Notes under the pieces: model-generated
The model's input: the letters and a program-made list of their open reading frames with translations, nothing else
Databases searched by the model: none
Told to the model about the DNA's origin: nothing
Translations under genes and position numbers: made by a program
Part shown: positions 6,585 through 59,963 of the stretch, piece after piece
How positions within the stretch are numbered: position 1 is the first letter of the stretch
Layout: each line of letters begins with the position of its first letter
Assembly: GCF_900103785.1 (NCBI RefSeq)
Contig: NZ_FNHE01000001.1
Location: forward strand, 310,001 to 374,000
Length of the DNA: 64,000 nt
Reading direction: 5' to 3'
From: Geodermatophilus siccatus
GTDB lineage: Bacteria > Actinomycetota > Actinomycetes > Mycobacteriales > Geodermatophilaceae

Positions 6585-6639
6585 AGGACCCCGTCCTCGT
6601 GACCGCTCGCACGCTCGCGGCGAGCCTCTGGACGGGGCC
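6585..6639. repeat. Hairpin element copy 1 (outer arms CCCCGTCC/GGACGGGG)
   Basis: Outer arms at 6589-6596 and 6630-6637 are perfectly complementary. The interior holds a variant of the shared core (GACCGCTCGCACGCTCGCGG). The element starts 4 nt after the DUF5679 stop codon and is followed by an independent 18-bp terminator. Confidence 0.75.
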
Positions 6640-6671
6640 GACCCGGCTCGGGGTGGGCCCGGCAGGGGGCC

Positions 6672-6710
6672 ACGGACGGCGGCGCCCGCACCGCGGGCGC
6701 CGCCGTCCGT
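6672..6710 (+). terminator. Strong hairpin terminator after DUF5679
   Basis: A perfect 18-bp stem (6672-6689 with 6693-6710) closes a 3-nt loop. There is no U-tract, as usual in very high-GC actinobacteria. It should stop transcription before the ThiF-like gene. Confidence 0.75.
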
Positions 6711-6750
6711 CGTCTCCGGCGCCTGTGGACGGACGGAGCGCGCCGGGTCG

Positions 6751-7962
6751 GTGGGCTGGCACCCTGCGCCGGTGGCCGACACCGCGCACCCCCTGCTGCC
6801 CCCGGGCGTCCCGCTGCTGCGCCTCGCCGGGCCGGACGGTGCCGAGGACGTCCAGATCGGCGGTGCCGACTCCACCGACGGGTTGCTCGTCTCCCCCGGT
6901 GCCGCCGGGCTCACCACCCTGCTGCGCGACCTGGACGGCCGCCGCACCGAGCGTGCCGTCCTCGCCGAGGCAGCCCTCGCCGGCCACGACGCCGCGGCGC
7001 TGAGCGCCGTCCTCGACGGTCTGCGCACCACCGGGCTGCTGGTCGACCTCGACCCCGCCGACCTGCTGGCCTCCGCCGTCGGGCCGGCCGCAGCCGCCCG
7101 CACGCGGACCGAGCTGCCCACCGCCACGGGCCGGGAGTCCGGCTCGCGCTGGCGCACCCGCCGGGCAGCGACCGTCGTCGTCGACGGCGCGACGCGGGTC
7201 GGCGTCCCGCTCGCCGCCGTGCTCGCCGCCAGCGGCGTGGGCCGGGTGAGCGTCCGGGACGACGGGCTGACCACGGCCGGGGACGCCGTCGTCGGTGGGC
7301 TCGGCGCCGACGACGAGGGCCGCCCGCGCGCGCTGGCCGCCGCGGACGCCGTGCGCCGCGTCAGCCCGCTCACCGACCTGCGGCCCCTGCCGGCCGGCAC
7401 TCCGGTCGACCTGGTGGTGCTGACCCGGCCCTGGGCGGCGTCGGACCCGCTCGCGGCCGACCTGCAGCGGCGCGGGGTGCCGCACCTGGTGGCGACGGTC
7501 CGCGGGGAGACCGGCGTGGTGGGGCCGCTGGTCGTGCCCGGGGCGACGGGCTGCCTGCGCTGCGCGGACCTGCACCGCCGGGACGTCGACCCGCGGTGGC
7601 CGGCGGTGGCCGCCCAGCTCACCGCGGCCGAGGCGCCACCAGGTGGGGCCACGGTGACCTGCCTGGCGACCGTGGTCACGGCGACGGTGCAGGTCCTGGC
7701 GCTGCTCGACGGCACAGGGGCGCCGCTCGCCGTCGGGGCGACGGTGGAGCTGAGCCCGCCGGACCTGCTGCCCCGCACCCGCCGGTGGCCGGCCCACCCC
7801 GACTGCGGGTGCGTGCCCGACGGTGACGAGGGGGTCCTGACCGCTCCGTCAGCGGTACCGGCGCCGATCGGGGGACAATGGTCGGCGAGTGCGCCTCCGG
7901 GCCCGGACGGGGCCGGTGCCGCCGCGACCGCGGACGACTGGACGCCGAGGAGGAGTACGTGA
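6751..7962 (+). CDS. ThiF-like / TOMM cyclodehydratase-type protein
   Basis: The 403-residue product has a winged-helix-like N-terminal part (roughly 1-110) and a degenerate ThiF/E1-like Rossmann region with RAATVVVDGATRVGVPLAAV in place of the usual GxGxxG. CLRCADLHRRD and HPDCGC near the C-terminus could bind zinc. This architecture matches bacteriocin/TOMM cyclodehydratase-domain proteins that hold a leader peptide; no precursor peptide gene or YcaO is nearby, so the role is probably different. The GTG at 6772 is an alternative start and neither start has a Shine-Dalgarno. The stop overlaps the start of the ABC1 kinase gene (GTGA), so the two are translationally coupled. Confidence is good for the gene and modest for the function. 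Confidence 0.75.
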   Translation: MGWHPAPVADTAHPLLPPGVPLLRLAGPDGAEDVQIGGADSTDGLLVSPGAAGLTTLLRDLDGRRTERAVLAEAALAGHDAAALSAVLDGLRTTGLLVDLDPADLLASAVGPAAAARTRTELPTATGRESGSRWRTRRAATVVVDGATRVGVPLAAVLAASGVGRVSVRDDGLTTAGDAVVGGLGADDEGRPRALAAADAVRRVSPLTDLRPLPAGTPVDLVVLTRPWAASDPLAADLQRRGVPHLVATVRGETGVVGPLVVPGATGCLRCADLHRRDVDPRWPAVAAQLTAAEAPPGGATVTCLATVVTATVQVLALLDGTGAPLAVGATVELSPPDLLPRTRRWPAHPDCGCVPDGDEGVLTAPSAVPAPIGGQWSASAPPGPDGAGAAATADDWTPRRST

Positions 7963-9281
7963 CCGAGCCTGGCCGGGGCATCCCACGAGGCTCGGTCTCA
8001 CGGACCGCACGACTGGCCTCGCTGCCGCTGGGGGCGGCCGGTCGGGCCACCCTGGGCATCGGCAAACGGCTGTCCGGCCGCCCCGCCGATGCGGTGACCG
8101 CGGAGCTGCAGCAGCGCACCGCCGAGCAGCTGTTCGCCGTCCTCGGGCAGCTCAAGGGCGGGGCGATGAAGCTCGGGCAGACGCTCTCGGTGTTCGAGGC
8201 GGCCGTGCCCGAGGAGGTCGCCGCCCCGTACCGGGAAGCGCTGGTCAAGCTGCAGGAGGAGGCGCCGCCGATGCCGGCGCGCACCGTCCACGCGGTGCTC
8301 GCGCAGCAGCTCGGCGGCTCGTGGCGCACGCGCTTCAAGGAGTTCGACGACGCGCCGGCGGCCGCGGCCAGCATCGGGCAGGTGCACCGGGCGACCTGGC
8401 GGGACGGCCGGGACGTCGCCGTGAAGATCCAGTACCCGGGTGCGGCGACCGCGCTGATGGCCGACCTGAACCAGCTGGCCCGCTTCGCCCGGCTGTTCGC
8501 CGCGCTGTTCCCCGGCCTGGACGTGAAGCCGCTCATCACCGAGCTCAAGGCCCGGGTGGTCGAGGAGCTGGACTACGGCCTGGAGGCCGACTCGCAGCGG
8601 ACCTTCGCCGCCGCGTACGCCGACGACCCCGAGATCGTCGTCCCCCGGGTGGTGGCCAGCGCGCCGAAGGTGATCGTCTCGGAGTGGCTCGAGGGGACGC
8701 CGCTGTCCCGGATCATCGCGACCGGGACCCGCGAGCAGCGGGACCGGGCCGGCCACCTCATGGCGGTGCTCAACTTCTCCGGACCGCAGCGCGCCCGGCT
8801 GCTGCACGCCGACCCGCACCCGGGCAACTTCCGGCTGCTGGAGGACGGACGGCTCGGCGTCATCGACTTCGGCGCCACCGCGCGCCTGCCCGACGGCCTC
8901 CCCGAGCCGATCGGGCGGTTGGTGCGCTGGGCGCTGGAGGGCCGGGCGGAAGACGTGCTCGCCGACCTGCGGGTCGAGGGCTTCGTCCGGCCCGGCGTCG
9001 AGGTGGACGCCCAGGGTGTCCTCGACTACCTGCTGCCGCTGCTGGAGCCCATCCAGAGCCCCTACTTCCGCTTCACCCGCGCCTGGATGCAGGAGCAGGC
9101 CGCCCGCCTGGCCGATCCGCGCAGCGAGGCCAACCGGCTGGGCCGGATGCTCAACCTGCCGCCCGCCTACCTGCTCATCCACCGGGTGACCATCGGGTCG
9201 ATCGGGGTGCTCTGCCAGCTCGACGCGGGTGACGACTACCGCAGCGTGCTCGAGGCGTGGTTGCCCGGCTTCACCGACTGA
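7959..9281 (+). CDS. ABC1/UbiB-family atypical kinase
   Basis: The product has 440 residues and belongs to the AarF/UbiB/ADCK family. Visible motifs are the KxGQ signature (KLGQTLSV, near 70), the Ala-rich loop and lysine (VAVKIQYPG), the catalytic loop HADPHPGNF and the metal-binding VIDFGATARL. Family members are atypical kinase/ATPases that support isoprenoid lipid or quinone metabolism; in menaquinone-using actinobacteria the target is unknown. It starts at GTG 7959 with GAGGAGGAG upstream and overlaps the ThiF-like gene by 4 nt. The pair lies beside whiB7, as Rv3197 lies beside Rv3197A. A perfect terminator follows at 9300-9342. Confidence 0.9.
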   Translation: MTEPGRGIPRGSVSRTARLASLPLGAAGRATLGIGKRLSGRPADAVTAELQQRTAEQLFAVLGQLKGGAMKLGQTLSVFEAAVPEEVAAPYREALVKLQEEAPPMPARTVHAVLAQQLGGSWRTRFKEFDDAPAAAASIGQVHRATWRDGRDVAVKIQYPGAATALMADLNQLARFARLFAALFPGLDVKPLITELKARVVEELDYGLEADSQRTFAAAYADDPEIVVPRVVASAPKVIVSEWLEGTPLSRIIATGTREQRDRAGHLMAVLNFSGPQRARLLHADPHPGNFRLLEDGRLGVIDFGATARLPDGLPEPIGRLVRWALEGRAEDVLADLRVEGFVRPGVEVDAQGVLDYLLPLLEPIQSPYFRFTRAWMQEQAARLADPRSEANRLGRMLNLPPAYLLIHRVTIGSIGVLCQLDAGDDYRSVLEAWLPGFTD

Positions 9282-9299
9282 CCTCCCCGGAGACGACAG

Positions 9300-9342
9300 G
9301 AGGCCGGGTCCGGACGCACCGGGAGCGTCCGGACCCGGCCTC
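9300..9342. terminator. Bidirectional terminator after the ABC1 kinase gene
   Basis: A perfect 18-bp stem (9300-9317 with 9325-9342) closes the 7-nt loop ACCGGGA. It lies between convergent genes (ABC1 kinase on plus, small basic protein on minus) and can serve both. Confidence 0.85.
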
Positions 9343-9398
9343 GATCGGGATGGCCCCGCCGCACGGGCCCTTCCGTGGTGGGGCAGCGGGCCCTCACT

Positions 9399-9563
9399 TC
9401 AGCGGACGGCGGCGCTGGCCCGTGCGGCACGCCGGGTGGCGTACTCGGCACGGCGGGCCCAGCGGCGGGCGGCGCGCAACCGGCGGGCGCGCGCCGCGGT
9501 GTCGGCCTCGGCGCGCAGGTCGCGCAACCGGTCGACGGCCAGGTCGTACTCGAAGCTGTACAC
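9399..9563 (-). CDS. Small basic protein downstream of whiB7
   Basis: A 54-residue reading frame starts at GTG 9563 with GAGGAC at ribosome-site distance. It begins VYSFEYDLAVDRLRDLRAEA and continues as a highly charged Arg/Ala helix ending RAARASAAVR. Similar short proteins with an N-terminal Y-x-F-E-Y are common in actinobacteria and unassigned. It lies 115 bp downstream of whiB7 on the same strand, separated by a hairpin element, and ends at a strong terminator. The function is unknown; the helix could bind nucleic acid. Confidence 0.65.
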   Translation of the reverse strand: MYSFEYDLAVDRLRDLRAEADTAARARRLRAARRWARRAEYATRRAARASAAVR

Positions 9564-9626
9564 GTCAGGTCCTCACGTCGTCGTGGACGGCCCGCTCCTG
9601 CGGATCCGTACTCGGTGGACTCGTAT

Positions 9627-9676
9627 GGCCCCTGCCTCCCACCGCTCGCGAGCTCGCGGTGGGAGGCAGGGGGTCC
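9627..9676. repeat. Hairpin element copy 2 (17-bp perfect stem) after whiB7
   Basis: The arms 9629-9645 and 9656-9672 pair perfectly over 17 bp, closing the loop TCGCGAGCTC. In the minus orientation the element begins 2 nt after the whiB7 stop codon. It is the longest uninterrupted stem of the nine copies and should act as a terminator or RNA 3'-end. Confidence 0.8.
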
Positions 9677-9678
9677 TC

Positions 9679-10014
9679 CTACGCCACCTTGCGGGGGCGA
9701 CCCCGCGGGCGCTTGCGCGGGATGACCACACCCCGCTCGAAGATCTCCCCGCCCCAGACGCCCCACGGCTCGCCGCGGCGGAGCGCCCCGGCCAGGCAGG
9801 CGTCGCGGACCGGGCACTCCGTGCAGCGGACCTTGGCCTCCTCCAGCCCTGCCGGGGTGTCGGCGAACCAGAGGTCGGGGTCGGTCCGGCACGGCAGGGG
9901 ACGCCGCACCGGTGCCGGCGCCAACGAGGGCGCCGGCCGTCGGGGAAGGGAGCCGCCGGTCCGGGGGAGCCCGGTTCGGCGGTGGGACGTCGGACGGTCG
10001 GCCGTCGACTGCAC
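9679..10014 (-). CDS. whiB7: WhiB7-type transcription factor
   Basis: The product has 111 residues. The four iron-sulfur cluster cysteines are in LPCRTD and CTECPVRDAC, followed by the family G(V/I)WGG turn (EPWGVWGGEIFERG). The C-terminal RPRGRPRK is the AT-hook that distinguishes WhiB7 from other WhiB proteins. WhiB7 binds sigma-A at promoters with an AT-rich box just before the -35 and induces intrinsic antibiotic resistance. The first 40 residues are a Pro/Arg-rich extension. The start is GTG 10014 with GAGGAGG 7 nt before it. It lies behind a roughly 540-nt leader with its own ORF and attenuator-like hairpins, and next to uvrD2 as in mycobacteria. Confidence 0.92.
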   Translation of the reverse strand: MQSTADRPTSHRRTGLPRTGGSLPRRPAPSLAPAPVRRPLPCRTDPDLWFADTPAGLEEAKVRCTECPVRDACLAGALRRGEPWGVWGGEIFERGVVIPRKRPRGRPRKVA

Positions 10015-10099
10015 TGCCGCTCCTCCTCGTACTCGTCGTCTGCGACCGGCGGGGGCCCGCCGACCGGGAGTCGGGGCGGGTGCCGCGGCGGAGATGAGA

Positions 10100-10134
10100 G
10101 AGGCCGCGGAACCCGGTTCGGGTTCCGCGGCCTC
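10100..10134 (-). terminator. Attenuator hairpin upstream of whiB7
   Basis: A perfect 15-bp stem (10100-10114 with 10120-10134) closes a 5-nt loop. On the minus strand it comes after the stop of the 104-residue leader ORF and before the whiB7 start, so transcription must pass it to reach whiB7. The arm shares 4 nt with an upstream alternative hairpin. Confidence 0.75.
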
Positions 10135-10177
10135 GAGGAGGTCCTGTCGAGCGCTAGCTCGAGGGTCTCCTCGAGGA
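10131..10177 (-). promoter_or_regulatory. Alternative hairpin overlapping leader-ORF stop and attenuator
   Basis: CCTCGAGGAG (10131-10140) pairs with CTCCTCGAGG (10168-10177), and TCGAG/CTCGA form an inner stem (10147-10151 with 10158-10162). The TAG stop of the leader ORF (10154-10156) sits in the loop. The outer arm covers 10131-10134, which are also part of the attenuator stem, so a ribosome at the stop codon would decide which structure forms. The mechanism is inferred; the complementarity is seen directly. Confidence 0.6.
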
Positions 10178-10468
10178 GTGGATCCCGAGGGTGGTGCCGT
10201 TGTGCTCGGTGGTGGTGCGCGTGCCGACCTGCTGCGCGTAGCCGGTGGTGCCGAAGGCGCCGGTCGCCGGGGTCACGAAGACGTCGATGCCCGAGAAGTC
10301 GAGGCCGGGGACACGGGTGCCGGGGCGCGTGGGAACGGCCGGGATAGCCGGGAGGGCGCGCAGACGCGCGACCACGGGCGACTCGACGGCGCAGGCAGCC
10401 GGGGGCACGGCGAGGCCCACCGGGCCACGAGCCCCGGCGGGGGCGAGGGTCCACATGGTGCTGATCAC
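10154..10468 (-). CDS. whiB7 leader ORF, 104 residues, unknown function
   Basis: The frame starts at GTG 10468 with GGAGGAGGT 8 nt upstream, one of the best ribosome sites in the window, and ends at TAG 10154-10156. The product begins VISTMWTLAPAGARGPVGLA, is rich in Pro, Val and Thr, and ends TTTEHNGTTLGIHSSRRPSS. I recognise no domain. Its position between a WhiB7-box promoter and an attenuator before whiB7 suggests a regulatory upstream ORF rather than an enzyme, although it is longer than the short uORFs known in mycobacteria and Streptomyces. Whether the peptide itself acts cannot be told. Confidence 0.65.
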   Translation of the reverse strand: MISTMWTLAPAGARGPVGLAVPPAACAVESPVVARLRALPAIPAVPTRPGTRVPGLDFSGIDVFVTPATGAFGTTGYAQQVGTRTTTEHNGTTLGIHSSRRPSS

Positions 10469-10557
10469 GTCGCCCACCTCCTCCGGGGGTCGGATCACGG
10501 CCGTGCGGCCGGTCTCGGGTCCTGGCGCGCTCGAGGTGTCCTGCGAGCGCGATCAGG

Positions 10558-10596
10558 ACAGTAGGGGGCCGCCGCGGAGGCGGTCAACGCAATTAA
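10558..10596 (-). promoter_or_regulatory. whiB7 autoregulated promoter (AT box, -35, -10)
   Basis: Read on the minus strand: TTAATT (10596-10591), 3 bp, -35 TTGACC (10587-10582), an 18-bp spacer, and -10 TACTGT (10563-10558). The AT-rich hexamer exactly 3 bp before the -35 is the published WhiB7-dependent promoter layout. It is one of very few AT-rich spots here. Transcription would start near 10551, about 80 nt before the leader ORF. Confidence 0.8.
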
Positions 10597-10652
10597 CCGG
10601 CCCGGGTCCGGGCGGCTGCGGACGTCCGGCCGCCGTGACCGAGGGCAACGAC

Positions 10653-12677
10653 TCAGGAGCCGAGGGTGCTCAGCACGTCCTCGCCGTAGAGCTCGAGCTT
10701 GCGAGCGCCGATGCCCGGCAGGGCGGCCAGTTCGCGCAGCGACGCCGGCCGGGTCTCCGCGATGGCCTGCAGCGTGGCGTCGGTGAAGACGACGTAGGCG
10801 GGGACCGACGCCGACGCGGCCGTCTCGCTGCGCCAGGCGCGCAGCCGCTCGAACAGCTCCCCCGCCTCGCCCTCGAGCACCACCTTGGCGCGCTTCTGCC
10901 GCCGCTGCGGGGGTGCCGCGGTCGGCGTGGACCCGGGGACCAGCCCGTCGAGGAACCGGCTGCGCGGCCGGGACCGGCGGCCGCCGGGGTTGCGGGCCAG
11001 CGACCACGACAGCGTCAGCTGCTCCCGGGCGCGGGTGACGGCGACGTAGAGCAGCCGCCGCTCCTCCTCCACCGCGTCCGGCCGGGACAGCGACTGCGAG
11101 ATCGGCAGCACGCCGTCGACCAGGCCGACGACGAAGACGGCGTCCCACTCCAGGCCCTTGGCCGCGTGCATCGAGGCCAGCGTGACGCCCTGCACGGTGG
11201 GGGCGTGCTGCGCGTCGGCGCGGGCGGCCAGGTGCGACACGAAGCCGGCGAGGTCCATCGTCGGGTCCTCGGCGACCAGGTCGACGGCGAGGTCGACCAG
11301 CGCGGCGAGGGATTGCCAGCGGTCCCGGGCCGCTCCCCCGGGCGGCGGGCGGTGCTCGACCCAGCCGGTGGAGGCCAGCACGTCGCGCACGGTGGGCACC
11401 AGTGCGCCCGGCTCGGTGCCGCCTGCTGCGGCGCCGCGCAGCAGCAGGATGGCCTCGCGCACCTCCGGGCGCTCGAAGAACCGCTCGCCGCCGCGCAGCA
11501 CGTAGGGCACGCCCACCGCGGCGAGCGCGTTCTCGTAGACCTCGGACTGCGCGTTGATCCGGAACAGGACGGCGATCTCCGCGGCCGGCGTCCCGGCCTC
11601 GACGAGTGCTCGGCAGGCCTGGGCGACCGCCGCGGCCTCGGTGGGCTCGTCGGGGTGCTCGAAGAAGCGGGGCGCGGGGCCGTCGGCGCGCTGGCCCAGC
11701 AGCCGGAGCCCCGGCAGTCCCTTGCGCGGCGGCGCCTGCCCGATCAGCTTGTTGGCCAGGGCCACGACCTGCGGCGTCGAGCGGTAGTCGCGCTCCAGCT
11801 TGACCACCTCGGCGTCCGGGTACCGGTCGGCGAAGCCCAGCAGGTAGTCGGGGTCGGCGCCGGTGAACGAGTAGATGGTCTGGTTGGGGTCGCCGACCAC
11901 GCAGACGTCGGCGCGGCCACCGAGCCAGGCGTCGAGCAGCCGCTGCTGCAACGGGTTGACGTCCTGGTACTCGTCCACCACGAAATGCCGGTACTGCCCG
12001 CGCACCTGGCGGGCGACGTCCGGGTGCTCCTCGAGGGCGAAGGCGGTGACCAGCAGCAGGTCCTCGAAGTCCAGCGCGCCGTCGCGCTGCTTGGCCGACT
12101 CGTAGCTCGCGTAGACCCGCGCCACCGCCGCGGACTCGAACGGGGGCTCGCGGCCGGCGGCCTGGGCGCGGGCCGGGTAGTCGTCGGGCGTGGCCAGCGT
12201 GGTCTTGGCCCACTCGATCTCGCTGGCGAGGTCGCGCAGGCTGGTGCGGTCGGTGGACAGCCGGGACCGGGAGGCGGCCGCCGCCACCAGCCGCAGCTTG
12301 TTCTCGACGAGCTCCGGCATCGGCCCGCCGAGCACCCGGGGTGCGAAGTAGCGCAGCTGGCGCATGGCCGCGGCGTGGAAGGTGCGGGCCTGGACACCGC
12401 CCACCCCCAGCCCGGCCAGCCGGGACCGCAGTTCGCCCGCGGCGCGGGCGGTGAAGGTGACGGCGAGGACCTGCTCGGGCACGAACGCCCCGGTGTGCAC
12501 GCCGTAGGCGATCCGGTGGGTGATCGTGCGGGTCTTGCCGGTGCCCGCACCGGCGAGGATGCAGACCGGGCCGGACACCGCCTGCGCCGCGGCGCGCTGC
12601 TCGTCGTCCAGCTGCGCGAGCACCGCCTCGGCGCCCTGCACCCGGACGTCCCCGGGCGCACCGGCGATCTGCGACAT
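10653..12677 (-). CDS. uvrD2: UvrD-like DNA helicase UvrD2 with HRDC domain
   Basis: The 674-residue protein has the superfamily 1A motifs: Walker A GAGTGKT (near 45), Walker B VVDEYQDVNP, QTIYSFTGAD, and VTLASMHAAKGLEWDAV and VAVTRAREQL near the end of the motor. After a basic linker the C-terminus carries an HRDC domain (LRELAALPGIGARKLELYG). This is the mycobacterial UvrD2 arrangement, a 3'-5' helicase. The tetracysteine block found between motor and HRDC in M. tuberculosis UvrD2 is not visible. The start is ATG 12677 with GGGGAGG 4 nt before it. It is divergent from mrx1 and lies directly upstream of the whiB7 locus on the same strand. Confidence 0.93.
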   Translation of the reverse strand: MSQIAGAPGDVRVQGAEAVLAQLDDEQRAAAQAVSGPVCILAGAGTGKTRTITHRIAYGVHTGAFVPEQVLAVTFTARAAGELRSRLAGLGVGGVQARTFHAAAMRQLRYFAPRVLGGPMPELVENKLRLVAAAASRSRLSTDRTSLRDLASEIEWAKTTLATPDDYPARAQAAGREPPFESAAVARVYASYESAKQRDGALDFEDLLLVTAFALEEHPDVARQVRGQYRHFVVDEYQDVNPLQQRLLDAWLGGRADVCVVGDPNQTIYSFTGADPDYLLGFADRYPDAEVVKLERDYRSTPQVVALANKLIGQAPPRKGLPGLRLLGQRADGPAPRFFEHPDEPTEAAAVAQACRALVEAGTPAAEIAVLFRINAQSEVYENALAAVGVPYVLRGGERFFERPEVREAILLLRGAAAGGTEPGALVPTVRDVLASTGWVEHRPPPGGAARDRWQSLAALVDLAVDLVAEDPTMDLAGFVSHLAARADAQHAPTVQGVTLASMHAAKGLEWDAVFVVGLVDGVLPISQSLSRPDAVEEERRLLYVAVTRAREQLTLSWSLARNPGGRRSRPRSRFLDGLVPGSTPTAAPPQRRQKRAKVVLEGEAGELFERLRAWRSETAASASVPAYVVFTDATLQAIAETRPASLRELAALPGIGARKLELYGEDVLSTLGS

Positions 12678-12780
12678 CGGCCTCCCCGTCTCCCGTCGAT
12701 GGCCGTGACCCATCCTCCCAGCCCCCAGCGACAGACGGGGGAAGCATCCCCAGGGGCGCGGCGTTGTGGCCCCGTGACGG

Positions 12781-12798
12781 CCGGGCACGCGTGCCCGG
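12781..12798. promoter_or_regulatory. 18-bp perfect palindrome upstream of mrx1
   Basis: CCGGGCACGCGTGCCCGG is perfectly self-complementary and ends 29 nt before the mrx1 ATG, in the region shared with divergent uvrD2. It could be an operator or a leader hairpin. GC-rich palindromes are frequent here, so the call is tentative. Confidence 0.4.
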
Positions 12799-12827
12799 AC
12801 CCCCGACCGACCAGGAGGAACGCCTCG

Positions 12828-13091
12828 ATGACCGCCGCTCCCGCCGCCGTGACCATGTACACCACCCCCTGGTGCGGGTACTGCGTGCGGCTCAAGAAGC
12901 TGATGCAGCGCGAGGGCATCGAGTACGCCGAGGTCGACATCGAGCGCGACCCGGCCGCGGCCGAGCTGGTGATGCAGGCCAACGGGGGCAACCGCACCGT
13001 CCCGACGCTGCTCTTCCCCGACGGCAGCGCCCTGACCAACCCCAGCATCGACCAGGTGAAGGCCCAGCTGGAGCAGTCCGCAGAGGCATGA
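12828..13091 (+). CDS. mrx1: Mycoredoxin (glutaredoxin-like)
   Basis: An 87-residue glutaredoxin-fold protein. The active site is TPWCGYC (Cys16, Cys19), the cis-proline block GNRTVPTLLF and the Gly-rich C-terminal SALTNPS region follow. The CGYC motif and position beside uvrD2 match mycoredoxin-1, which reduces S-mycothiolated proteins with mycothiol as electron donor. The start is ATG 12828 with AGGAGG 9 nt before it. It is transcribed divergently from uvrD2. Confidence 0.92.
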   Translation: MTAAPAAVTMYTTPWCGYCVRLKKLMQREGIEYAEVDIERDPAAAELVMQANGGNRTVPTLLFPDGSALTNPSIDQVKAQLEQSAEA

Positions 13092-13150
13092 CGGCGGGTG
13101 GTCCCTCCGCTGCGCTGCGCGAGGGGGCATAGTCGTCGAGGACGGCTCGT

Positions 13151-13156
13151 TACCGT
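13151..13156 (+). promoter_or_regulatory. -10-like box for the ANTAR gene
   Basis: TACCGT lies 53 nt before the GTG at 13210, in the otherwise unfeatured 118-bp gap after mrx1. A GGAGG ribosome site precedes the GTG, so a short 5' UTR is expected. No clear -35 is seen. Confidence 0.4.
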
Positions 13157-13209
13157 AGCCCCCTGCCCCCGGCTACCCGCCGGGCCCAGCCCCTCGCGGA
13201 GGCCGCCCA

Positions 13210-13878
13210 GTGAGTGAGCGCACCACCCCAGCGGAGTGTCCCCCGACACCGCCGTCGTCCGGGCCCGGGGGCGACCTCGTGAGTTCCGCCCTGGAGCAGG
13301 CAACGGCGGGGGGTGCCCCGTCGGGCGGGGAGTCCACCGTGGTGGTCGCCCGGACCGTACGCGGCTGGTCGGTGTTCGCCCCCGGCCGGGCCGAGGACGT
13401 CGACGACCTCGTCGAGGGCATGACCCTCGCCGACCTGGTCAGCGAGGAGCTGGGCGCGCGGGTCGAGCCCGACCGCCGCGCGCGGCGGGCCGCCCGTGGT
13501 GCCGCCGGGGACGCCGACCCCGACGCCGACCCGCGGGACGCCCGGCTGGCCTCGCTCGAGCGCACCGTCGCCCAGCTCGAGCACGCCCTGGCCGCGCGGG
13601 TCTCCACCGAGCGCGCCATCGGGGTGCTCGCCGAGCGGCAGGGCGCGACGCCGCAGGCCGCCTTCGAGCAACTGCGGCGCAACGCCCGCTCGCAGGGGCG
13701 GCCGGTGCCAGAGCTCGCCCGCGAGGTGCTCGACGACCTGGTGGCCCGTTCCGCCCCGACGGGCACCGAGGTCCCGGCCGCGCCGGCGCCGGCGCCGCGC
13801 ACCCTGGTGCGGGAGGCCGGCCGGGCGCCCCGCACCCGCAGCCGGGCCGGACGCGGCCCCGCGGAGGGCCGGTCCTGA
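13210..13878 (+). CDS. ANTAR-domain protein
   Basis: The product has 222 residues. The N-terminal 110 residues are variable (WSVFAPGRAEDVDDLVEGM). About residues 112-178 form a coiled segment plus three-helix ANTAR domain (RVSTERAIGVLAERQGATPQ then ELAREVLDDLV). ANTAR domains bind tandem RNA hexaloop hairpins to prevent termination; no receiver or GAF domain is present, so the input signal is not evident. The C-terminal tail is Ala/Pro/Arg-rich. The start is GTG 13210 with GGAGG 8 nt upstream. The TGA overlaps the likely CTG start of the next gene (CTGA). Confidence 0.85.
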   Translation: MSERTTPAECPPTPPSSGPGGDLVSSALEQATAGGAPSGGESTVVVARTVRGWSVFAPGRAEDVDDLVEGMTLADLVSEELGARVEPDRRARRAARGAAGDADPDADPRDARLASLERTVAQLEHALAARVSTERAIGVLAERQGATPQAAFEQLRRNARSQGRPVPELAREVLDDLVARSAPTGTEVPAAPAPAPRTLVREAGRAPRTRSRAGRGPAEGRS

Positions 13879-14618
13879 CCCGACCGGAGCCGCTCACCCC
13901 CGAGGCACTGGCCGACCGGCTGGCCGCACTGCTCGCCGCCACCGACCCCGAGCCCGGGGCGACCGCCCTGCGCGTGGCGGTGGACGGGCCCGACGTCGCC
14001 GCGCCGGCCGAGCTGGCGGCCGCGGTCGCCGAGCGGTTGCCGCCGCTGGGGCGCCCCGCCGTCGTGGTCCCCGCCGGCGGGTTCCTGCGTCCGGCGTCCC
14101 TGCGCTTCGAGCACGGCCGCACCGACCCCGACGCCCGCTACACCGACTGGCTGGACTCCGGCGCGCTGTCCCGCGAGGTGCTCGGCCCGGTCGGTCCCGG
14201 CGGCTCCGGGGAGTACCTGCCGGTGCTCTGGGACGTCGACCGCGACCGGGCCGCCCGCGCCGTCCCCCGGCCGATGCCGCCCCGCGGCGTGCTGCTGGTC
14301 CCGGGGGCGCTGCTGCAAGGGGTCGGGTTGGCCTTCGACGTCGTCGTCCACCTGCGGGTAGCCCCGGCGGCCCGTCGCCGCCGCACGCCCACCGAGCAGG
14401 CCTGGGAGCTGCCGGCGTTCGACCGGTACGACGACGAGGTGGATCCGGTGTCGCTGGCCGACGCCGTGGTGCTGGCCGACTCCCCCGACCACCCCGCTCT
14501 GGTGCTCCAGAACCGCTGGAGGAAGGACCCCTCTGCCCCCCACCGCTCGCAAGCTCGCGGCGGGACCCTGCAGAGGGGCCGGGAGTTCACAGATCCTGGG
14601 TCACCCAGCGGTCGATGA
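13875..14618 (+). CDS. Uridine-kinase-like protein with probable CTG start
   Basis: The frame begins after the ANTAR gene with LTRPEPLTPEALADRLAALL and contains TALRVAVDGPDVAAPAELAA, the position of the P-loop in uridine-kinase-like proteins, but the GxxGxGKS is not kept. EVLGPVGPGGSGEYLPVLWD and the R-rich lid (AARRRRTPTEQAWELPAFDRY) resemble the actinobacterial uridine kinase family. No ATG, GTG or TTG is available near the homologous N-terminus; CTG 13875 has GGAGGG 6 nt before it and overlaps the previous stop as CTGA. The last 30 codons read through a hairpin element, so the normal C-terminus (near LQNRWR) has probably been extended. It ends 32 bp inside convergent nudC. Confidence 0.7.
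   Translation: MTRPEPLTPEALADRLAALLAATDPEPGATALRVAVDGPDVAAPAELAAAVAERLPPLGRPAVVVPAGGFLRPASLRFEHGRTDPDARYTDWLDSGALSREVLGPVGPGGSGEYLPVLWDVDRDRAARAVPRPMPPRGVLLVPGALLQGVGLAFDVVVHLRVAPAARRRRTPTEQAWELPAFDRYDDEVDPVSLADAVVLADSPDHPALVLQNRWRKDPSAPHRSQARGGTLQRGREFTDPGSPSGR
14524..14580. repeat. Hairpin element copy 3 (arms CCCCTCTGC/GCAGAGGGG), inside a reading frame
   Basis: The outer arms 14528-14536 and 14570-14578 are perfectly complementary and differ from the other copies on both sides. The core is CACCGCTCGCAAGCTCGCGG. Unlike the other copies it lies before the stop, where it encodes about 19 residues of the kinase-like C-terminus. It separates that gene from convergent nudC. Confidence 0.8.
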
Positions 14619-15552
14619 TGTGCCGGGCGATGGAGACCGCCGGGGGCAGCGCCTGCGGGCCGGTACCCGAGCGCAGCTCGTCCCGGGTGAACCAGCGGGC
14701 CTCCTCGATCTCGGTCGGGTCCAGCCGCAGCGTCAGGTCGCCCTCGGCGCGAGCGGTGTAGCCGAGCATCAGCGACTGCGGGAACGGCCACGGCTGGCTG
14801 CCCGCGTAGCGGATGTCGGTGACCCGCAGGCCGACCTCCTCGGCCACCTCCCGCGCCACCGCGCCCTCGGCGGACTCCCCCGGCTCGACGAAGCCGGCGA
14901 GGATCGAGAAGCGCCCCGGCGGCCACACCGCCTGGCGGCCCAGCACGCAGCGGTCGCCGCCGTCGTGGACCAGCATGATCACGGCCGGGTCGGTGCGGGG
15001 GAACAGCTCCGCGCCGGTCTCCGGGTCGCGCTGCACCCAGCCGGCCCGTTCGATCGTCGTCCGCGCGCCGGACAGCGGGCTGAACCGGTGCCGCTCGTGC
15101 CACTCGACCATGGCGACCGCCTCGGCGAGCAGGCCGGCGTCGAGGTCGTCGAGGTCGGCGCCGAGGTCGCGCAGGCCGGCCCAGGTGTCCGCGGGGCGGC
15201 CACCGACGGTCAGCCGCCGGTCGCCGCGGACGGCGGCGTAGGGCACGCCGTCGGCCTCGCCGAGGTAGATCGCGCCCTCGGGCAGCCCGGTCCGCTCCTC
15301 CCAGAGCAGCCGCGGTCGGCCCCCGTCCTCCTCGACCGGCACGGTGCGCCGCTCGTCGACCGTGAGCACCCGCACCGGGCGGCCGCCGGTCGGGTCGGGC
15401 AGCGACCGGGCCAGGTGGCTGCGGTCGTGCGCGGAGCGCGACAGCACCGGGACCGCGCCGGCCGGTGAGGGGCTGCTCTCCGGCCAGGAGACGCCGTCGC
15501 CCGACGGCGGCGGGTTGTCCGCCGGCGTGCTGCCGCCGTCCGGGACGCTCAT
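14587..15552 (-). CDS. nudC: NAD(H) pyrophosphatase NudC, zinc cysteines lost
   Basis: A 321-residue Nudix hydrolase. The Nudix box GFVEPGESAEGAVA-REVAEEVGL is complete, and the NudC signature SQPWPFPQSLM is present 17 residues on, which identifies NADH pyrophosphatase/NAD-decapping enzymes. The usual zinc ribbon is gone: where relatives have FCPxCG the sequence is RFSPLSGART, and the second knuckle reads VQRDPETGAELFPRTDP, so all four cysteines are absent. The fold may be kept without metal. The ATG at 15552 overlaps the stop of the M16 gene (ATGA), placing nudC third in an operon with two proteases. Confidence 0.9.
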   Translation of the reverse strand: MSVPDGGSTPADNPPPSGDGVSWPESSPSPAGAVPVLSRSAHDRSHLARSLPDPTGGRPVRVLTVDERRTVPVEEDGGRPRLLWEERTGLPEGAIYLGEADGVPYAAVRGDRRLTVGGRPADTWAGLRDLGADLDDLDAGLLAEAVAMVEWHERHRFSPLSGARTTIERAGWVQRDPETGAELFPRTDPAVIMLVHDGGDRCVLGRQAVWPPGRFSILAGFVEPGESAEGAVAREVAEEVGLRVTDIRYAGSQPWPFPQSLMLGYTARAEGDLTLRLDPTEIEEARWFTRDELRSGTGPQALPPAVSIARHIIDRWVTQDL

Positions 15553-16904
15553 GCCGCGTCCGCCGACGAGACGACCTCGACCGGGCCGAACGCGCGCAGC
15601 GGCTCGGCCACCTGCCCGGAGTCGCCGACGACGACGGCGGTGAGCCCGCCGGGCTGCAGGAACCGGCGCGCGGCCTCCTGCACCTCCTCGACGGTGACCC
15701 GGGCCAGCGCCTGCTGGTGCTCGGCCAGCCACTGCGGCGCCAGGCCCGACCCCGTGAGCGCCGACAGCGTGCTGGCCAGCCCGGCGTGGGTGGCGGTGGA
15801 CAGCGCCATGCTGCCGAGCACGTAGCGACGGGCGGCGTCGAGCTCCTCCGCGCTGACCGGCGTCAGGGCCATGCGGCCGAGTTCGTACCAGGTCTCGAGG
15901 AACGCCGGCCCGGTGACCTCGGTGGCGACGTCGGCCTCGACGAGGAACGAGGAGGCGGCGGCGAGGTGGTCGACCGAGCTGCGCGGGCTGTAGCTGTAAC
16001 CACGCCGCTCGCGGATGTTCTCCACCAGCCGGGAGGAGAAGTAGCCGCCGTAGACCATGTTGGCCAGCCGGACCGCGGGCAGGTCGGGGTCGGTGCGGCC
16101 GGGCGCGGTGCCACCCAGGCGCAGGTTGGACTGCACGGCGCCGGGCCGGTCGACCACCTGGAGCGGCCCGGGGGCCAGCTGCGGCACCGGTGGGGCGGCG
16201 ACCGCCGTCCCCTCGCCGGTCCAGCCGGCCAGTGCGGTGCCGACGGCGTCGACGGCGGCGGCCGGGTCGAGGTCGCCGACCAGCACCAGCGTGCTGCCGG
16301 CGGGCAGCACCCGCTCGCGGTGCAGCTTGCGCAGCGCCTGGCTGCGCACCGCGGCGACCAGCTCGGCGGCGGGCAGCTGCTCGGCGTACGGGTGGGCGCC
16401 GTAGCGGCGGGCGGCCAAGGCGGTGCGCGCGATGACGCCCGGCTGGGAGCGGGCGATGGAGATCCGCTCGGCGACGCGCGCCCGCTCGGCCTCCACCCGG
16501 TCGGCCGGGTAGGTGGCGTCGGTGAGCACCTCGGCCAGCACGCCGAGCACGGGTGCGAGGCCCTCGGCGAGCAGCGTGGTGGCGAACAGCAGGCGGTCGG
16601 GGTCGGTGGAGACCGACAGCTCCCCGCCGTGGGCCTGCAGCGCCTCGGCGATGCCGGTGGCGTCGTGCGCGCCGGTGCCCAGCAGGACGGCGCCGGAGAG
16701 CACCGAGGCGCGGGCGGTGTGCTGGGCGGCGGCGCGCGCGGTCGCCGCGGCGAAGGGCACCCGCAGGCGCAGCTCGACCAGCGGGACACCGGGCCGCGGG
16801 ACGACGACGAGCCGCAGTCCGTTGGGCAGCGTCTCCTCGGTGACGGCCAGCTCCGGCTGCGGCCGGGGCTCGCCCAGCGGCGGGATCAGCACGGGGGCAC
16901 TCAT
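15549..16904 (-). CDS. M16 peptidase family, non-catalytic subunit
   Basis: The 451-residue protein has the paired M16 fold but no HxxEH zinc motif at the expected N-terminal site (AAQHTARASVLSGAVLLG). It keeps the arginine/tyrosine pair of the second subunit (NIRERRGYSYSPRS), which binds substrate. It therefore resembles the partner of a catalytic M16B subunit, like mitochondrial processing peptidase alpha. It is translated right after the catalytic gene with a 4-nt overlap (ATGA), and nudC overlaps its end in the same way. A secreted form is unlikely since no signal peptide is seen. Confidence 0.87.
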   Translation of the reverse strand: MSAPVLIPPLGEPRPQPELAVTEETLPNGLRLVVVPRPGVPLVELRLRVPFAAATARAAAQHTARASVLSGAVLLGTGAHDATGIAEALQAHGGELSVSTDPDRLLFATTLLAEGLAPVLGVLAEVLTDATYPADRVEAERARVAERISIARSQPGVIARTALAARRYGAHPYAEQLPAAELVAAVRSQALRKLHRERVLPAGSTLVLVGDLDPAAAVDAVGTALAGWTGEGTAVAAPPVPQLAPGPLQVVDRPGAVQSNLRLGGTAPGRTDPDLPAVRLANMVYGGYFSSRLVENIRERRGYSYSPRSSVDHLAAASSFLVEADVATEVTGPAFLETWYELGRMALTPVSAEELDAARRYVLGSMALSTATHAGLASTLSALTGSGLAPQWLAEHQQALARVTVEEVQEAARRFLQPGGLTAVVVGDSGQVAEPLRAFGPVEVVSSADAA

Positions 16905-18211: not shown

Positions 18212-18586
18212 GTGCCCGACCCTAACCGCGCCCTGGGACGCCGCGCCGGGCGACGCCGGAGGCTGCGACCTCGGCCACCGGCGGGCCTCCCGTTCTCGCG
18301 GCGGGTTCCTCGTGACCCTCGCGCGGTTGCCCTCGCGTTCGCGCTGGTGCAACGGCGTGGGAGCGGGTGCAACGGCGTGGGAGTGGAGGCACGTGGCCGC
18401 GGTGCGGGTCCCCCGAGCAGGGACCGGACTCACCGGCTCAACGGCGGCCGGGGACGGCACGTGGCCGCGGTGCGGGTCCCTGGGAGCGGGGGCCCGGAGG
18501 GTCCCCCGAGCAGGGACGGGACTCACCGGCTCAACGGCGGCCGGGGACGGCACGTGGCAACGGTGTCAGCCGGTAGGCCGACGATG
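18212..18586. repeat. Intergenic repeat array (units of 68 and 93 bp)
   Basis: Between two minus-strand genes lies an array with unit starts GGCACGTGGCCGCGGTGCGG at 18388 and 18456 and a partial one at 18549. Unit 1 (68 bp) equals unit 2 (93 bp) minus an internal 25-bp hairpin segment around GGAGCGGGGGCCC. Each ends ACCGGCTCAACGGCGGCCGG. A 20-bp duplication containing GTGCAACGGCGTGGGAG precedes them (about 18345-18384). The last partial unit ends CCGGTAGGCCGACGATGT at the stop of the DUF2510 gene, as in the array near 5363. The TAGGGT promoter box of the M16 operon is at 18219-18224. No gene is seen. Confidence 0.8.
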
Positions 18587-19450: not shown

Positions 19451-19485
19451 GGCGTCACCCTAGGTGCGGCGGCCGGGAGCCCCCG

Positions 19486-31463: not shown

Positions 31464-31538
31464 AGGACCACCCCGCCCCCCCACCGGTGGCAGGCTCGCG
31501 GCGGGACCCTGCAGGGCGGCCGGGGGGAGGGTGGTCCT
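31464..31538. repeat. Hairpin element copy 4 (arms AGGACCACCC/GGGTGGTCCT)
   Basis: Outer arms 31464-31473 and 31529-31538 are perfectly complementary and unlike any other copy; an inner CCGCCC/GGGCGG pair (31473-31478, 31514-31519) follows. The core CAGGCTCGCGGCGGGACC is shared. It begins 4 nt after the moeZ stop on the minus strand and is longer than the rest. Confidence 0.75.
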
Positions 31539-31542
31539 CCGC

Positions 31543-36016: not shown

Positions 36017-36017
36017 C

Positions 36018-36071
36018 GAAGGCCCCGTGTCCCCACTGCTCGGGAGCTCGCGGCGGGCCCTGCAGGGGGCC
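36018..36071. repeat. Hairpin element copy 5 (degenerate)
   Basis: The element starts 2 nt after the TetR stop. Its arms are GGCCCC (36021-36026) and GGGGCC (36066-36071), with the core CTGCTCGGGAGCTCGCGGCG. The outer stem is shorter and less regular than in other copies. Confidence 0.6.
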
Positions 36072-39069: not shown

Positions 39070-39126
39070 AGGACCCCCTTGCCCCCCACCGCTCGCAAGC
39101 TCGCGGCGGGACCCTGCAAGGGGGCC
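39070..39126. repeat. Hairpin element copy 6 (arms CCCCCTTGC/GCAAGGGGG)
   Basis: The arms 39074-39082 and 39116-39124 pair perfectly and enclose CACCGCTCGCAAGCTCGCGG. It begins immediately after the rhlE TGA and probably ends the transcript. Confidence 0.85.
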
Positions 39127-40301: not shown

Positions 40302-40361
40302 AACAGGCCCCCCTGCCCCCCACCACTCACAGGCTCGCGGCGGGTCGACTGCAGGGGGGCC
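40302..40361. repeat. Hairpin element copy 7 (arms GGCCCCCCTGC/GCAGGGGGGCC)
   Basis: The 11-bp arms 40306-40316 and 40351-40361 pair perfectly. The core reads CACCACTCACAGGCTCGCGG. It begins directly after the TGA of the propeller gene. Confidence 0.85.
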
Positions 40362-42201: not shown

Positions 42202-42203
42202 AC

Positions 42204-42282
42204 AAGGACCCGGCTGCCCCCTTGAAGGACCCCCTTGCCCCCCGCCACTCGCAGGCTCGCGGCGGGACCCTGCAAGGGGGCC
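42204..42282. repeat. Hairpin element copy 8 with preceding half-copy
   Basis: A full element has arms CCCCCTTGC (42230-42238) and GCAAGGGGG (42272-42280). A separate left half (AAGGACCCGGCTGCCCCCTTG, 42204-42224) precedes it directly after the stop codon. The half-copy suggests slippage or repeated insertion at the same target. Confidence 0.75.
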
Positions 42283-44784: not shown

Positions 44785-44790
44785 GCCGGC

Positions 44791-52946: not shown

Positions 52947-52965
52947 CCGGCCACCCGTCCCGGGA

Positions 52966-57774: not shown

Positions 57775-57856
57775 GCCCGCACGGCACCGGGCAGAGCCCG
57801 ACCCCGCACGGCGCCCGGTCCGGTCCGGCTCGTGGTCCCCGGCGGGAGCCGACCGG

Positions 57857-58426: not shown

Positions 58427-58527
58427 CGCCACCTCCTCGGTTTCCACACTACTGGGCACTAGTTCTTGCATTTGCTTGCGTTTGCTTGCTTTAGTCACGA
58501 GGCGACATGACGAGTCGAGGAGGGGAC
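58427..58527. promoter_or_regulatory. AT-rich spacer with three 10-bp direct repeats
   Basis: TTTGCTTGC occurs at 58471-58479 and 58481-58489, and a diverged unit at 58461-58470 (AGTTCTTGCA) gives an exact 10-bp period. The stretch 58440-58500 is much lower in GC than anything around it. It lies between two divergent genes (58426 on minus, 58528 on plus). The helical spacing suggests cooperative binding of a regulator on one DNA face. Confidence 0.65.
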
Positions 58528-59256
58528 ATGTCGATCCGGCGCCTGTTCGGGACGGCGACGGCGATGGCCGCTGCCGCTGCCGGCCTCCGCGCGGTCACCC
58601 CGGACCTCGGGGCGGTCGCGGACGCCGGCCTGGACCTGCAGCGCGTCGTCGACACGGCCGGCGCCGAGACGGTCCTGCTCGCCGGCGTCGCGGCGCTCGC
58701 CTGGGCCGTCTGGCTGTGGGGCGCGCTGGGTCTGACCCTCACCGCGCTCTCCGCGCTGCCGGGGGTCGCCGGCACGATCGCGCGGACGCTCACCCGGTGC
58801 CTGCTGCCCGCCGGCGCCCGGCGGGCAGCTGCCCTCGCCCTGGGCGTCGGGCTGGTCACCGGCCCCCCGCTGGTGGCGGGCTGCACCCCGGTGTCGGGCG
58901 CACTCCCCCAGGCCGTCGCCGTCGCCTCCGCCGAGGGTCCCGTCGCTCCGGCGCACGGTCCCGTCGTCGACTGGCCGGAGACGCCCGCGCAGACGCCGGC
59001 TCCACCGGCACCGAGCGCCCCCGCCGCGGTGCCCGACTGGCCGGCACCGGTCCGGGACGAGCACGTCGTCCTGCGCGGCGAGTGCCTCTGGGACATCGCC
59101 GCCGCCGACCTCGCCCGGCAGACCGGCGTCAGCCCGACGGACGACGAGGTGGCCACGGCCGTCGACGCCTGGTGGCACGCCAACGCCGGAGTGATCGGCC
59201 CCGACCCCGACCTCCTGCGCCCGGGCCAGGTGCTGCGCCCGCCCCCGGCGTCCTGA
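58528..59256 (+). CDS. LysM-like domain membrane protein
   Basis: The 242-residue protein has two hydrophobic segments (TVLLAGVAALAWAVWLWGAL and ALALGVGLVTGPPLVAGC), a Pro/Ala linker of about 60 residues, and a C-terminal LysM-like module: EHVVLRGECLWDIAAADLAR then ANAGVIGPDPDLLRPGQVLR. LysM binds peptidoglycan. The ATG at 58528 has GAGGAGGGG 4-5 nt before it; the ATG at 58507 has none. It is followed 40 bp later by the Rv3235-like gene, probably in one transcript. Confidence 0.83.
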   Translation: MSIRRLFGTATAMAAAAAGLRAVTPDLGAVADAGLDLQRVVDTAGAETVLLAGVAALAWAVWLWGALGLTLTALSALPGVAGTIARTLTRCLLPAGARRAAALALGVGLVTGPPLVAGCTPVSGALPQAVAVASAEGPVAPAHGPVVDWPETPAQTPAPPAPSAPAAVPDWPAPVRDEHVVLRGECLWDIAAADLARQTGVSPTDDEVATAVDAWWHANAGVIGPDPDLLRPGQVLRPPPAS

Positions 59257-59296
59257 CGCCGCCCGCCCTCGCCCACCCCGGACCCCGGAGCCCCTG

Positions 59297-59884
59297 ATGA
59301 CCGCCCCCGTCCGCCCCGCCGCCACCGACACCGCAACCGACACCCCGCCCGGGGCCGGCCCGCAGCCGCCGCACGCTGCTCCGCTGCGGCTCACCGTCGT
59401 CCCGACGCCGCAGCCGCCGCTGGACCCGCAGCCGGTGCTGCGGCTGGTGCTCCCGGGCGTCGCCGTCCCGCGGGCACCGCACCGGCCGGGTCCACGGCCG
59501 CGTCCGGAGGAGCCCCTCACGGAGTTCGTGCCGGGCTTCGAGCCGACCTGGTCGGCCCGGACGGACCTCCCCGACCCGCGCGTCGCCGGACGCCGACTGC
59601 TGCTGCTCACCCTCGAGGGGCTGGCCGGCCACCGTCCGCTGAGCCAGGTGCAGCCGCTCGCCGCTCTCGGCGTCTACGCGGCGCTCACCAGCGGCCGCCG
59701 ACCCCGGTGGTGCGCCGGCGGCACCGCCCCGGTGCTGCTCGGCCCGGTGCACGTCTGCGAGCCGGTCGACGGGGTCGCCGAGGTCAGCGCGGTGGCCCGC
59801 CGGTCCGGCCGCGCGCACGCCGTCGCCGCGCGACTCGAGGGCATCGACGGCCGGTGGCGGTGCACCGCACTGCAGATCGGGTGA
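59297..59884 (+). CDS. Rv3235-family protein (DUF6459)
   Basis: The 195-residue protein has a Pro/Arg-rich N-terminal half and a conserved C-terminal domain: VAGRRLLLLTLEGLAGHRPL, SQVQPLAALGVYAALTSGRR and the closing GIDGRWRCTALQIG. This is the Rv3235/DUF6459 family, typically encoded just before secA. The function is unknown. The start is ATG 59297 with GGAG about 6 nt before it. It converges on secA, separated by a hairpin element and a terminator. Confidence 0.83.
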   Translation: MTAPVRPAATDTATDTPPGAGPQPPHAAPLRLTVVPTPQPPLDPQPVLRLVLPGVAVPRAPHRPGPRPRPEEPLTEFVPGFEPTWSARTDLPDPRVAGRRLLLLTLEGLAGHRPLSQVQPLAALGVYAALTSGRRPRWCAGGTAPVLLGPVHVCEPVDGVAEVSAVARRSGRAHAVAARLEGIDGRWRCTALQIG

Positions 59885-59963
59885 AGGAGCCCCCTGCCCC
59901 GCCATGGGAGGACCCCGTCCTCCCCACCACTCGCAAGCTCGGGGCGGGACCCGGGACGGGGCC
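59883..59963. repeat. Hairpin element copy 9 with preceding half-copy
   Basis: Arms CCCCGTCC (59913-59920) and GGACGGGG (59954-59961) pair perfectly and equal those of copy 1. The core is CACCACTCGCAAGCTCGGGG. A left half-copy (AAGGAGCCCCCTGCCCCGCC, 59883-59902) sits right at the stop codon, as in copy 8. Confidence 0.8.

What the first reader, a model, noticed from the sequence alone, without database searches (positions are those of the whole stretch)
6585..59963. Nine-copy hairpin element with a conserved core and covarying outer stem
Copies at 6585, 9627, 14524, 31464, 36018, 39070, 40302, 42224 and 59909 share the core CTCGCAAGCTCGCGGCGGG, yet the outer arms differ: CCCCGTCC/GGACGGGG, CCCCTCTGC/GCAGAGGGG, CCCCCTTGC/GCAAGGGGG, AGGACCACCC/GGGTGGTCCT. 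Each stays complementary, so the structure is under selection or copied with target-specific arms. Most begin 0-4 nt after a stop codon. It could be a family of high-GC terminators or RNA 3'-end elements, or a REP-like mobile palindrome. I recognise no described family.
Basis: seen in the sequence. Interest (0 to 1): 0.8.

Follow-up and report, generated by a model that had tools for sequence, protein, structure and literature searches.

The report
Mobile hairpin repeat abutting stop codons
The nine hairpins belong to a family of short, apparently mobile DNA repeats, hundreds of copies per genome in one family of soil actinobacteria, that often lie directly behind stop codons and inside one another, and for which no transposase could be found.

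Summary
The nine copies are real (0 of 100 shuffles reach nine) and belong to a large family: 111 model matches in 854 kb of this 5.2 Mb genome, present in 101 of 112 Geodermatophilaceae genomes, rare outside (3 genomes in a 298-genome sample of the order; none in a class sample). Stem covariation is strong (266 doubly changed cells, 81 in shuffles), but outer-stem mismatches are G.U 49, A.C 51: no sign of selection on the sense RNA. Congeners show presence/absence at orthologous stop codons, different subtypes at one site, and copies nested in each other: a non-autonomous, REP-like mobile hairpin. With strict criteria 48 of 104 gene-end copies start exactly behind the stop; all 48 follow TGA, 45 of them C-TGA. 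CTGA alone does not explain this: 35 of 824 CTGA stops carry a copy, but only 4 of 724 other noncoding CTGA sites, so gene ends are favoured for a further, unknown reason. A terminator role is not supported (no U tract; 18 of 64 codirectional copies within 40 nt of the next gene) but not excluded. Y1 transposases: 0 of 108 genomes; no reverse transcriptase in the own genome.

The parts
6582..6639 (+). Copy 1, directly behind the TGA of the gene 6429-6581 (DUF5679); arms CCCCGTCC/GGACGGGG
9627..9678 (-). Copy 2, nearly symmetric; on the - strand 2 nt behind the TAG stop of the gene 9679-9909 (WhiB). The + strand scores higher with the model (60.5 against 33.8 bits)
14521..14580 (+). Copy 3, type A, preceded by CTGGA where CTGA is usual; the called ORF 13974-14618 reads through it
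31464..31540 (-). Copy 4: read as a host copy behind the stop of the - strand ThiF/rhodanese gene 31543-32703 (arms GGACCACCC/GGGTGGTCC) with a type A copy inserted inverted (+ strand) in its interior
36017..36071 (+). Copy 5, type A, directly behind the TGA of the TetR gene 35366-36016
39070..39126 (+). Copy 6, type A, directly behind the TGA of the DEAD-box helicase gene 37549-39069 (TGA-A-GGACC class)
40302..40361 (+). Copy 7, type A, directly behind the TGA of the gene 39159-40301 (PQQ_2); next called start 40379
42202..42221 (+). 5' remnant of a host copy directly behind the TGA of the MPAB gene 41329-42201
42222..42282 (+). Copy 8, type A, inserted in that host
59885..59903 (+). 5' remnant of a host copy directly behind the TGA of the DUF6459 gene 59297-59884
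59904..59963 (+). Copy 9, arms CCCCGTCC/GGACGGGG, inserted in that host; a separate palindromic hairpin follows

Best explanation
The element is a non-autonomous mobile hairpin of about 55-60 nt: an unpaired 5' tag of about 4 nt (mostly NGRA), an outer stem GG-A-CC... with one bulged A, an inner stem, the loop TCGCnnGCTC, and on many copies a 3' tail GTTCCAGCACGTCACC. It spreads in Geodermatophilaceae by insertion of a folded, probably single-stranded, hairpin, with no target duplication seen, directly 3' of CTGA at gene ends and in the loops of older copies. The letters CTGA are preferred but do not suffice: other noncoding CTGA sites are nearly empty, so the state of gene ends (transcribed, translated, or simply where copies are tolerated or useful) must add to it. 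The stem covaries because copies that fold well are the ones that move, or because one arm is copied from the other. Shown: family, spread, turnover between species, nesting, the spike behind C-TGA stops, covariation, no G.U excess. Inferred: single-stranded intermediate, structure recognition, an unknown enzyme acting in trans.
For: Presence/absence at orthologous stops of own, G009 and G001: of 206 genes compared 130 have no element in any, 16 a sense element in all three, the rest are mixed; subtypes differ at shared sites (for example genes 128, 149, 156). The stop is mostly native: C-termini end at the same place in 10 of 15 filled/empty pairs (8 of 13 without two doubtful elements), against 345 of 401 pairs where both are empty. 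By eye, clean junctions without duplication at genes 158 and 242. Seventeen nested copies, my reading of 27 candidates. Distance to stop: 48 of 104 at exactly 4 nt (to GG of GGACC), 48 of 48 TGA (background 0.873, P 0.0015), 45 of 48 C before it (background 0.596, P 1e-7); the spike and the C preference recur in each of three genomes, the TGA excess only when pooled (orthologous sites not removed). TAG stops occur at spacings other than 4. Codirectional gaps: 64 sense, 10 antisense; convergent 25, divergent 2. Covariation 266 against 81; G.U 49, A.C 51.
Against: No mobiliser is known: Y1 0 of 108, Y2 1 of 104, RT absent from the own genome; no ORF-bearing version recognised in 1.65 Mb. Movement was not watched. 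CTGA alone fails to explain the position: 35 of 824 CTGA stops but 4 of 724 other noncoding CTGA sites are occupied (P 2e-6; some of the 4 may be gene ends my caller missed). Of 121 elements in that set 82 follow another tetramer; nested copies follow CTCG or ACCG, others often CAG. Sixteen sites with an element in all three species could mean demand for a hairpin. Only two junctions are clean.
Confidence: 0.56

Rival explanations
1. A family of transcription terminators, or of elements acting on mRNA 3' ends or on the terminating ribosome, selected as RNA at gene ends; the sequences move or convert, but sites keep a hairpin because it is useful directly behind the stop.
For: Sense orientation and exact spacing to the stop; stops favoured 8-fold over other noncoding CTGA sites (odds ratio); covariation; 16 of 206 genes carry a sense element in all three species, several with different subtypes.
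Against: Outer-stem mismatches G.U 49, A.C 51; no U tract; 18 of 64 codirectional sense copies within 40 nt and 24 of 64 within 60 nt of the next called start; a separate perfect hairpin at 22 of 114 convergent ends with and 51 of 198 without an element, 23 of 144 and 50 of 492 codirectional, so it does not clearly replace one; fast turnover; two near-complete genomes of carrying genera have none.
Confidence: 0.2
2. A true REP/RAYT system whose Y1 transposase is too divergent for the Pfam model, or has been lost.
For: Same anatomy: unpaired 5' tag, hairpin with a conserved bulge, gene-end position, short preferred target, no duplication seen.
Against: PF01797 rings in 5 of 14 control genomes and in 0 of 108 family genomes; no GTAG or CGTC tag at the hairpin foot.
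Confidence: 0.13
3. Spread by recombination, gene conversion or capture of hairpin fragments during break repair, with palindrome correction keeping the arms complementary; no transposase at all.
For: Insertion in loops with loss of about 8 nt of the host loop; mismatch parity; no enzyme found.
Against: A fixed spacing to TGA with a C preference points to a sequence-specific step; palindrome correction should also have removed the bulged A and the internal loops (inference).
Confidence: 0.11

Closest known systems
GTAG-tagged REPs and their RAYT (TnpA_REP) transposases
   Same: Short palindrome in high copy, behind genes, unpaired tag at the 5' foot, bulge in the stem, dimers and mosaics; recognised as folded single strands (PMC8266576, passages; PMC3733652, abstract and passages).
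   Different: No GTAG tag; no Y1_Tnp in 108 family genomes; variable outer stem with constant loop; spacing locked to TGA stops.
CGTC-tagged REPs
   Same: REP-like repeats said to lack a dedicated transposase (PMC3733652, abstract and passages).
   Different: No CGTC tag at the foot, longer two-part stem; the paper's main text has 0 occurrences of 'actinobacteria', 'geodermatophilus' or 'blastococcus'.
IS200/IS605 elements and their palindrome-only derivatives
   Same: Insertion 3' of a short target, no duplication, subterminal hairpins (largely recalled; in part passages of PMC8266576).
   Different: No transposase gene, no long version recognised.
Integron attC sites
   Same: Structure-recognised folded DNA with variable sequence and extrahelical bases, behind stop codons (recalled).
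   Different: Integrase not searched for; constant core with variable outer arm rather than the reverse (recalled).
Hairpin terminators of GC-rich bacteria without a U tract
   Same: GC-rich hairpin behind the stop.
   Different: Loop sequence shared by hundreds of copies, presence/absence between species, other hairpins beside some copies.

Membership tests
REP (GTAG, RAYT-mobilised) | High-copy extragenic palindrome behind genes | tested here: met
REP (GTAG, RAYT-mobilised) | Unpaired GTAG at the 5' foot | tested here: not met
   in 54 copies the four bases before GG are mainly G or A (last one A in 49); no GTAG consensus
REP (GTAG, RAYT-mobilised) | RAYT / Y1 transposase in the genome | tested here: not met
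   PF01797 in 0 of 108 genomes; 5 of 14 controls ring
REP (CGTC) | Unpaired CGTC at the foot | tested here: not met
Intrinsic terminator | Hairpin followed by a U tract | tested here: not met
   GC-rich stretches behind the nine copies; one search finds no terminator-like site at the three copies in 1-20000
Intrinsic terminator | RNA-level pairing kept (G.U tolerated, A.C not) | tested here: not met
   G.U 49, A.C 51 in outer stems
Intrinsic terminator | RNA 3' ends at the element | not testable with these tools
   no transcript data
Non-autonomous mobile repeat | Presence/absence at orthologous sites | tested here: met
Non-autonomous mobile repeat | Autonomous partner with related ends | tested here: inconclusive
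   none recognised in 1.65 Mb (60 of 115 long arm pairs were listed); the rest of the genomes not examined
Rfam families | Match at gathering score | tested here: not met
   0 matches in the window

The most novel reading that the evidence does not exclude
An undescribed mobilising enzyme, neither Y1 or Y2 HUH nor reverse transcriptase, recognises folded single-stranded hairpins by shape (bulged A, constant loop, covarying outer stem) and joins them behind C-TGA at gene ends, guided not by the letters alone but by transcription or translation of the site; a second, unrelated stop-abutting hairpin repeat in the same genomes may use the same machinery.
Probability: 0.28. Interest if true: 0.82.

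Novelty: new variant of a known kind. Interest (0 to 1): 0.58.

Why it matters
By scaling, about 680 hairpins lie in a 5.2 Mb genome, many touching the stop codon of a gene, where a terminating ribosome would meet them. If they move without a RAYT, the origin of REP-like repeats that lack a transposase (as reported for CGTC REPs) becomes testable in culturable Geodermatophilus, Blastococcus and Modestobacter. The excess at stops over equal letters elsewhere asks for a new targeting or selection step. The case also shows that stem covariation alone does not prove an RNA function.

Tried and rejected
Rfam: no match in the window at gathering score; four chance-like matches at lax threshold in 4900-33300. 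Target-specific arms: rejected; within what I saw, arms go with core subtypes (by eye). Stop brought by the element: rejected for most sites examined. CTGA letters as the whole explanation of position: I held this until, which speak against it; I lowered the best explanation from 0.62 to 0.56 and raised the RNA-level rival from 0.17 to 0.2 for that reason. Long ORF-bearing version: 115 long arm pairs in 1.65 Mb, of which the first 60 were printed; they look like chance. Reverse transcriptase as mobiliser: absent from the own genome, in 46 of the 104 genomes searched. Tail as tRNA-like or attC-like: considered, not tested. Separate-hairpin test: rates alike with and without an element, so weak evidence. 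Literature: searches list no paper that I recognise as describing this repeat (some listings were cut at 10-12 papers); PMC9686282 on Geodermatophilaceae mentions palindromic repeats only as CRISPR candidates in the passages found. 'Not in print' rests on these nine searches.

Results against my reading: sites outside stops are mostly not CTGA; G021 (same genus) has only 15-20 copies and two near-complete genomes of carrying genera none, which fits mobility but also loss; the scan (130 gene ends) includes some false elements (2 of 15 examined), so repeats it more strictly (104). Genes were called by my own codon-position script, not a standard caller. In one search I went from 118 matches to 115 (duplicates) and 111 (overlaps); matches up to E = 1 are included, so a few weak ones may be chance. 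In one search only 224 elements passed the arm filter, so badly decayed ones are missing. Output was cut.
Full report
Observation. The core occurs nine times in the window, all on the + strand (9 found, 0.50 expected, 0 of 100 shuffles). A model from the nine copies (R1) finds the same nine with 52-86 bits, which they must by construction; apart from the reverse strands of copies the next match has 15.6 bits. In 854 kb of the own genome it gives 118 matches at E up to 1, 111 after removal of duplicates and overlaps; scaled to 5.2 Mb about 680. The whole-genome figure of 152 is capped by the 150 candidates scored.

Spread. The exact 33-base core lies in 47 stretches of the named genome collection, all Geodermatophilaceae by title: Blastococcus, Geodermatophilus, Modestobacter, Trujillonella and one member named only to the family. 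R1 rings in 26 of 26 genomes of the genus, own included, in 101 of 112 family genomes (the 11 others are 9 fragmented genomes of three genera, and G026 and G054 inside carrying genera) and in 53 of 298 genomes of the order, 50 of them in the family and 3 outside with 1-2 copies. R2, built from 138 matches in G009 and G001, rings in 2 of 394 genomes of the class, both in the family (only 13 candidates a genome scored, strict filters). G026 and G054 stay at 0 with R2; G042 has 2, G032 4, G075 5, G046 11, G021 18.

Anatomy. Reading 5' to 3': an unpaired tag, mostly NGRA; GG, a bulged base (A in 134 of 162), CC and a variable stretch, paired with the mirror stretch and GGCC; an inner stem; the loop TCGCnnGCTC. 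By eye I see about five core types whose inner stems covary (CCGC/GCGG, CCCC/GGGG, CGCC/GGCG). Many copies carry the tail GTTCCAGCACGTCACC, sometimes in tandem with the 3' half. As single-stranded DNA both strands of copy 6 fold as hairpins (z -2.8 and -2.5), copy 3 too (z -3.4); copy 9 does not stand out (z -0.73).

Covariation. On A4 the structure has 93.6% paired cells, 266 doubly changed cells (shuffled 80.8, sd 6.2) and covariation score 0.357 (shuffled 0.118); slid structures reach at most 0.062. A4 is fitted to the structure, which favours it. Among 224 elements with a recognisable outer stem 114 are perfect over 8 pairs, with 25 different arms; mismatches are G.U/U.G 49 and A.C/C.A 51 (P 0.92). 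Selection on the sense RNA should leave many more G.U than A.C; parity is what decay of a DNA palindrome gives. It tells about resident copies, not about the copies that move.

Mobility. At orthologous stops of 40 relatives the element is present, absent, of another subtype, or nested. For 206 genes with reciprocal best hits in both G009 and G001, 130 have no element within reach in any of the three genomes, 16 have a sense element in all three, 4 an antisense one in all three, and the rest are mixed. At some all-three sites the subtype differs (genes 128, 149, 156). Gene 158 (G009 filled, G001 empty) and gene 242 (G001 filled, own empty) show insertion directly behind TGA with the downstream sequence continuing; gene 160 shows it inside a gap of about 28 nt, with altered flank. 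Nested copies: 27 candidates, of which I accept 17; same-orientation inserts mostly lie between host CTCG or ACCG and GCGG, with about 8 nt of loop lost, and inverted inserts replace the inner hairpin (by eye).

Target. With strict criteria 104 of 1509 gene ends carry an element whose GG can be placed; 48 are exactly 4 nt behind the stop and 13 at 1 nt, where the stop overlaps the tag. All 48 have TGA (background 0.873, P 0.0015 pooled; not significant in any single genome) and 45 have C before it (background 0.596, P 1e-7; below 0.03 in each genome); the spike recurs in own (14 of 39), G009 (15 of 31) and G001 (19 of 34). Orthologous sites are not independent. TAG stops appear at spacings 1, 2, 5, 8, 15 and 21, not at 4, so letters matter. 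Empty orthologues end at the same residue in 10 of 15 filled/empty pairs (8 of 13 without two doubtful elements), so the stop is mostly native. But letters do not suffice: in 1.65 Mb, 35 of 824 CTGA stops carry an element directly behind, against 4 of 724 other noncoding CTGA sites away from starts (odds ratio 8, P 2e-6). Either insertion is guided to gene ends in some further way, or copies elsewhere are removed, or copies at stops are kept.

Function. I find no support for a terminator: no U tract, 18 of 64 codirectional sense copies within 40 nt of the next called start, and separate palindromic hairpins behind some copies (by eye, own genes 128, 149, 156, 231, 285, 334). The last point is weak as a statistic: 22 of 114 convergent ends with and 51 of 198 without an element have a separate hairpin, codirectional 23 of 144 and 50 of 492. 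An effect on translation termination or mRNA decay, as reported for REPs (recalled), was not tested and would fit the excess at stops.

Mobiliser. PF01797 0 of 108, with 5 of 14 controls ringing; PF04986 1 of 104, with no control ringing; PF00078 46 of 104 but not in the own genome. Other transposase families were not searched.

Known kinds. REPs are the closest. PMC3733652 (abstract and passages seen) divides most of them in GTAG and CGTC tagged families, the latter without dedicated transposase; PMC8266576 (passages seen) describes recognition of folded REPs by tag, bulge and stem. This family works like a REP but fails the tag and transposase tests, so I file it as a REP-like variant, not as a member.

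Noticed in passing
window 5314-5364, 18396-18587, 32912-33010; other places in the own genome, G009 and G001: A second, unrelated repeat family: a conserved block like ACCGCGGCCAGGTGCCGTCC preceded by a hairpin whose arms vary together (GTCGGCC/GGCCGAC, GTCGTCC/GGACGAC, GCGGTCC/GGACCGC), often in tandem; in 7 of 26 hits the block lies 20-22 nt behind a stop, so the hairpin abuts it; 5 of 26 hits lie inside called genes.
   Followed up: partly
window 14521-14618: Copy 3 is preceded by CTGGA instead of CTGA and the called ORF runs through the element to 14618; perhaps a lost stop with the element now translated.
   Followed up: no
G001 C8:237413-237551 (L219): Tandem array of 3' half plus tail (GGCTCGCGGCGGGGCCC...GGCCGTTCCAGTACGTCACCG), about 46 nt period.
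   Followed up: no
L230, L233, L236, L242, L246 (G248, G164, G173): One or two copies in genomes of other families; the three shown in the scan lie directly behind a CTGA stop. Horizontal transfer with genes, or contaminating contigs.
   Followed up: partly
ThiF and MiaE stops in congeners (L148-L167): At the ThiF stop most congeners shown carry an element, with differing arms; at the MiaE stop the carriers mostly share the arm CCCCGGTGC.
   Followed up: no
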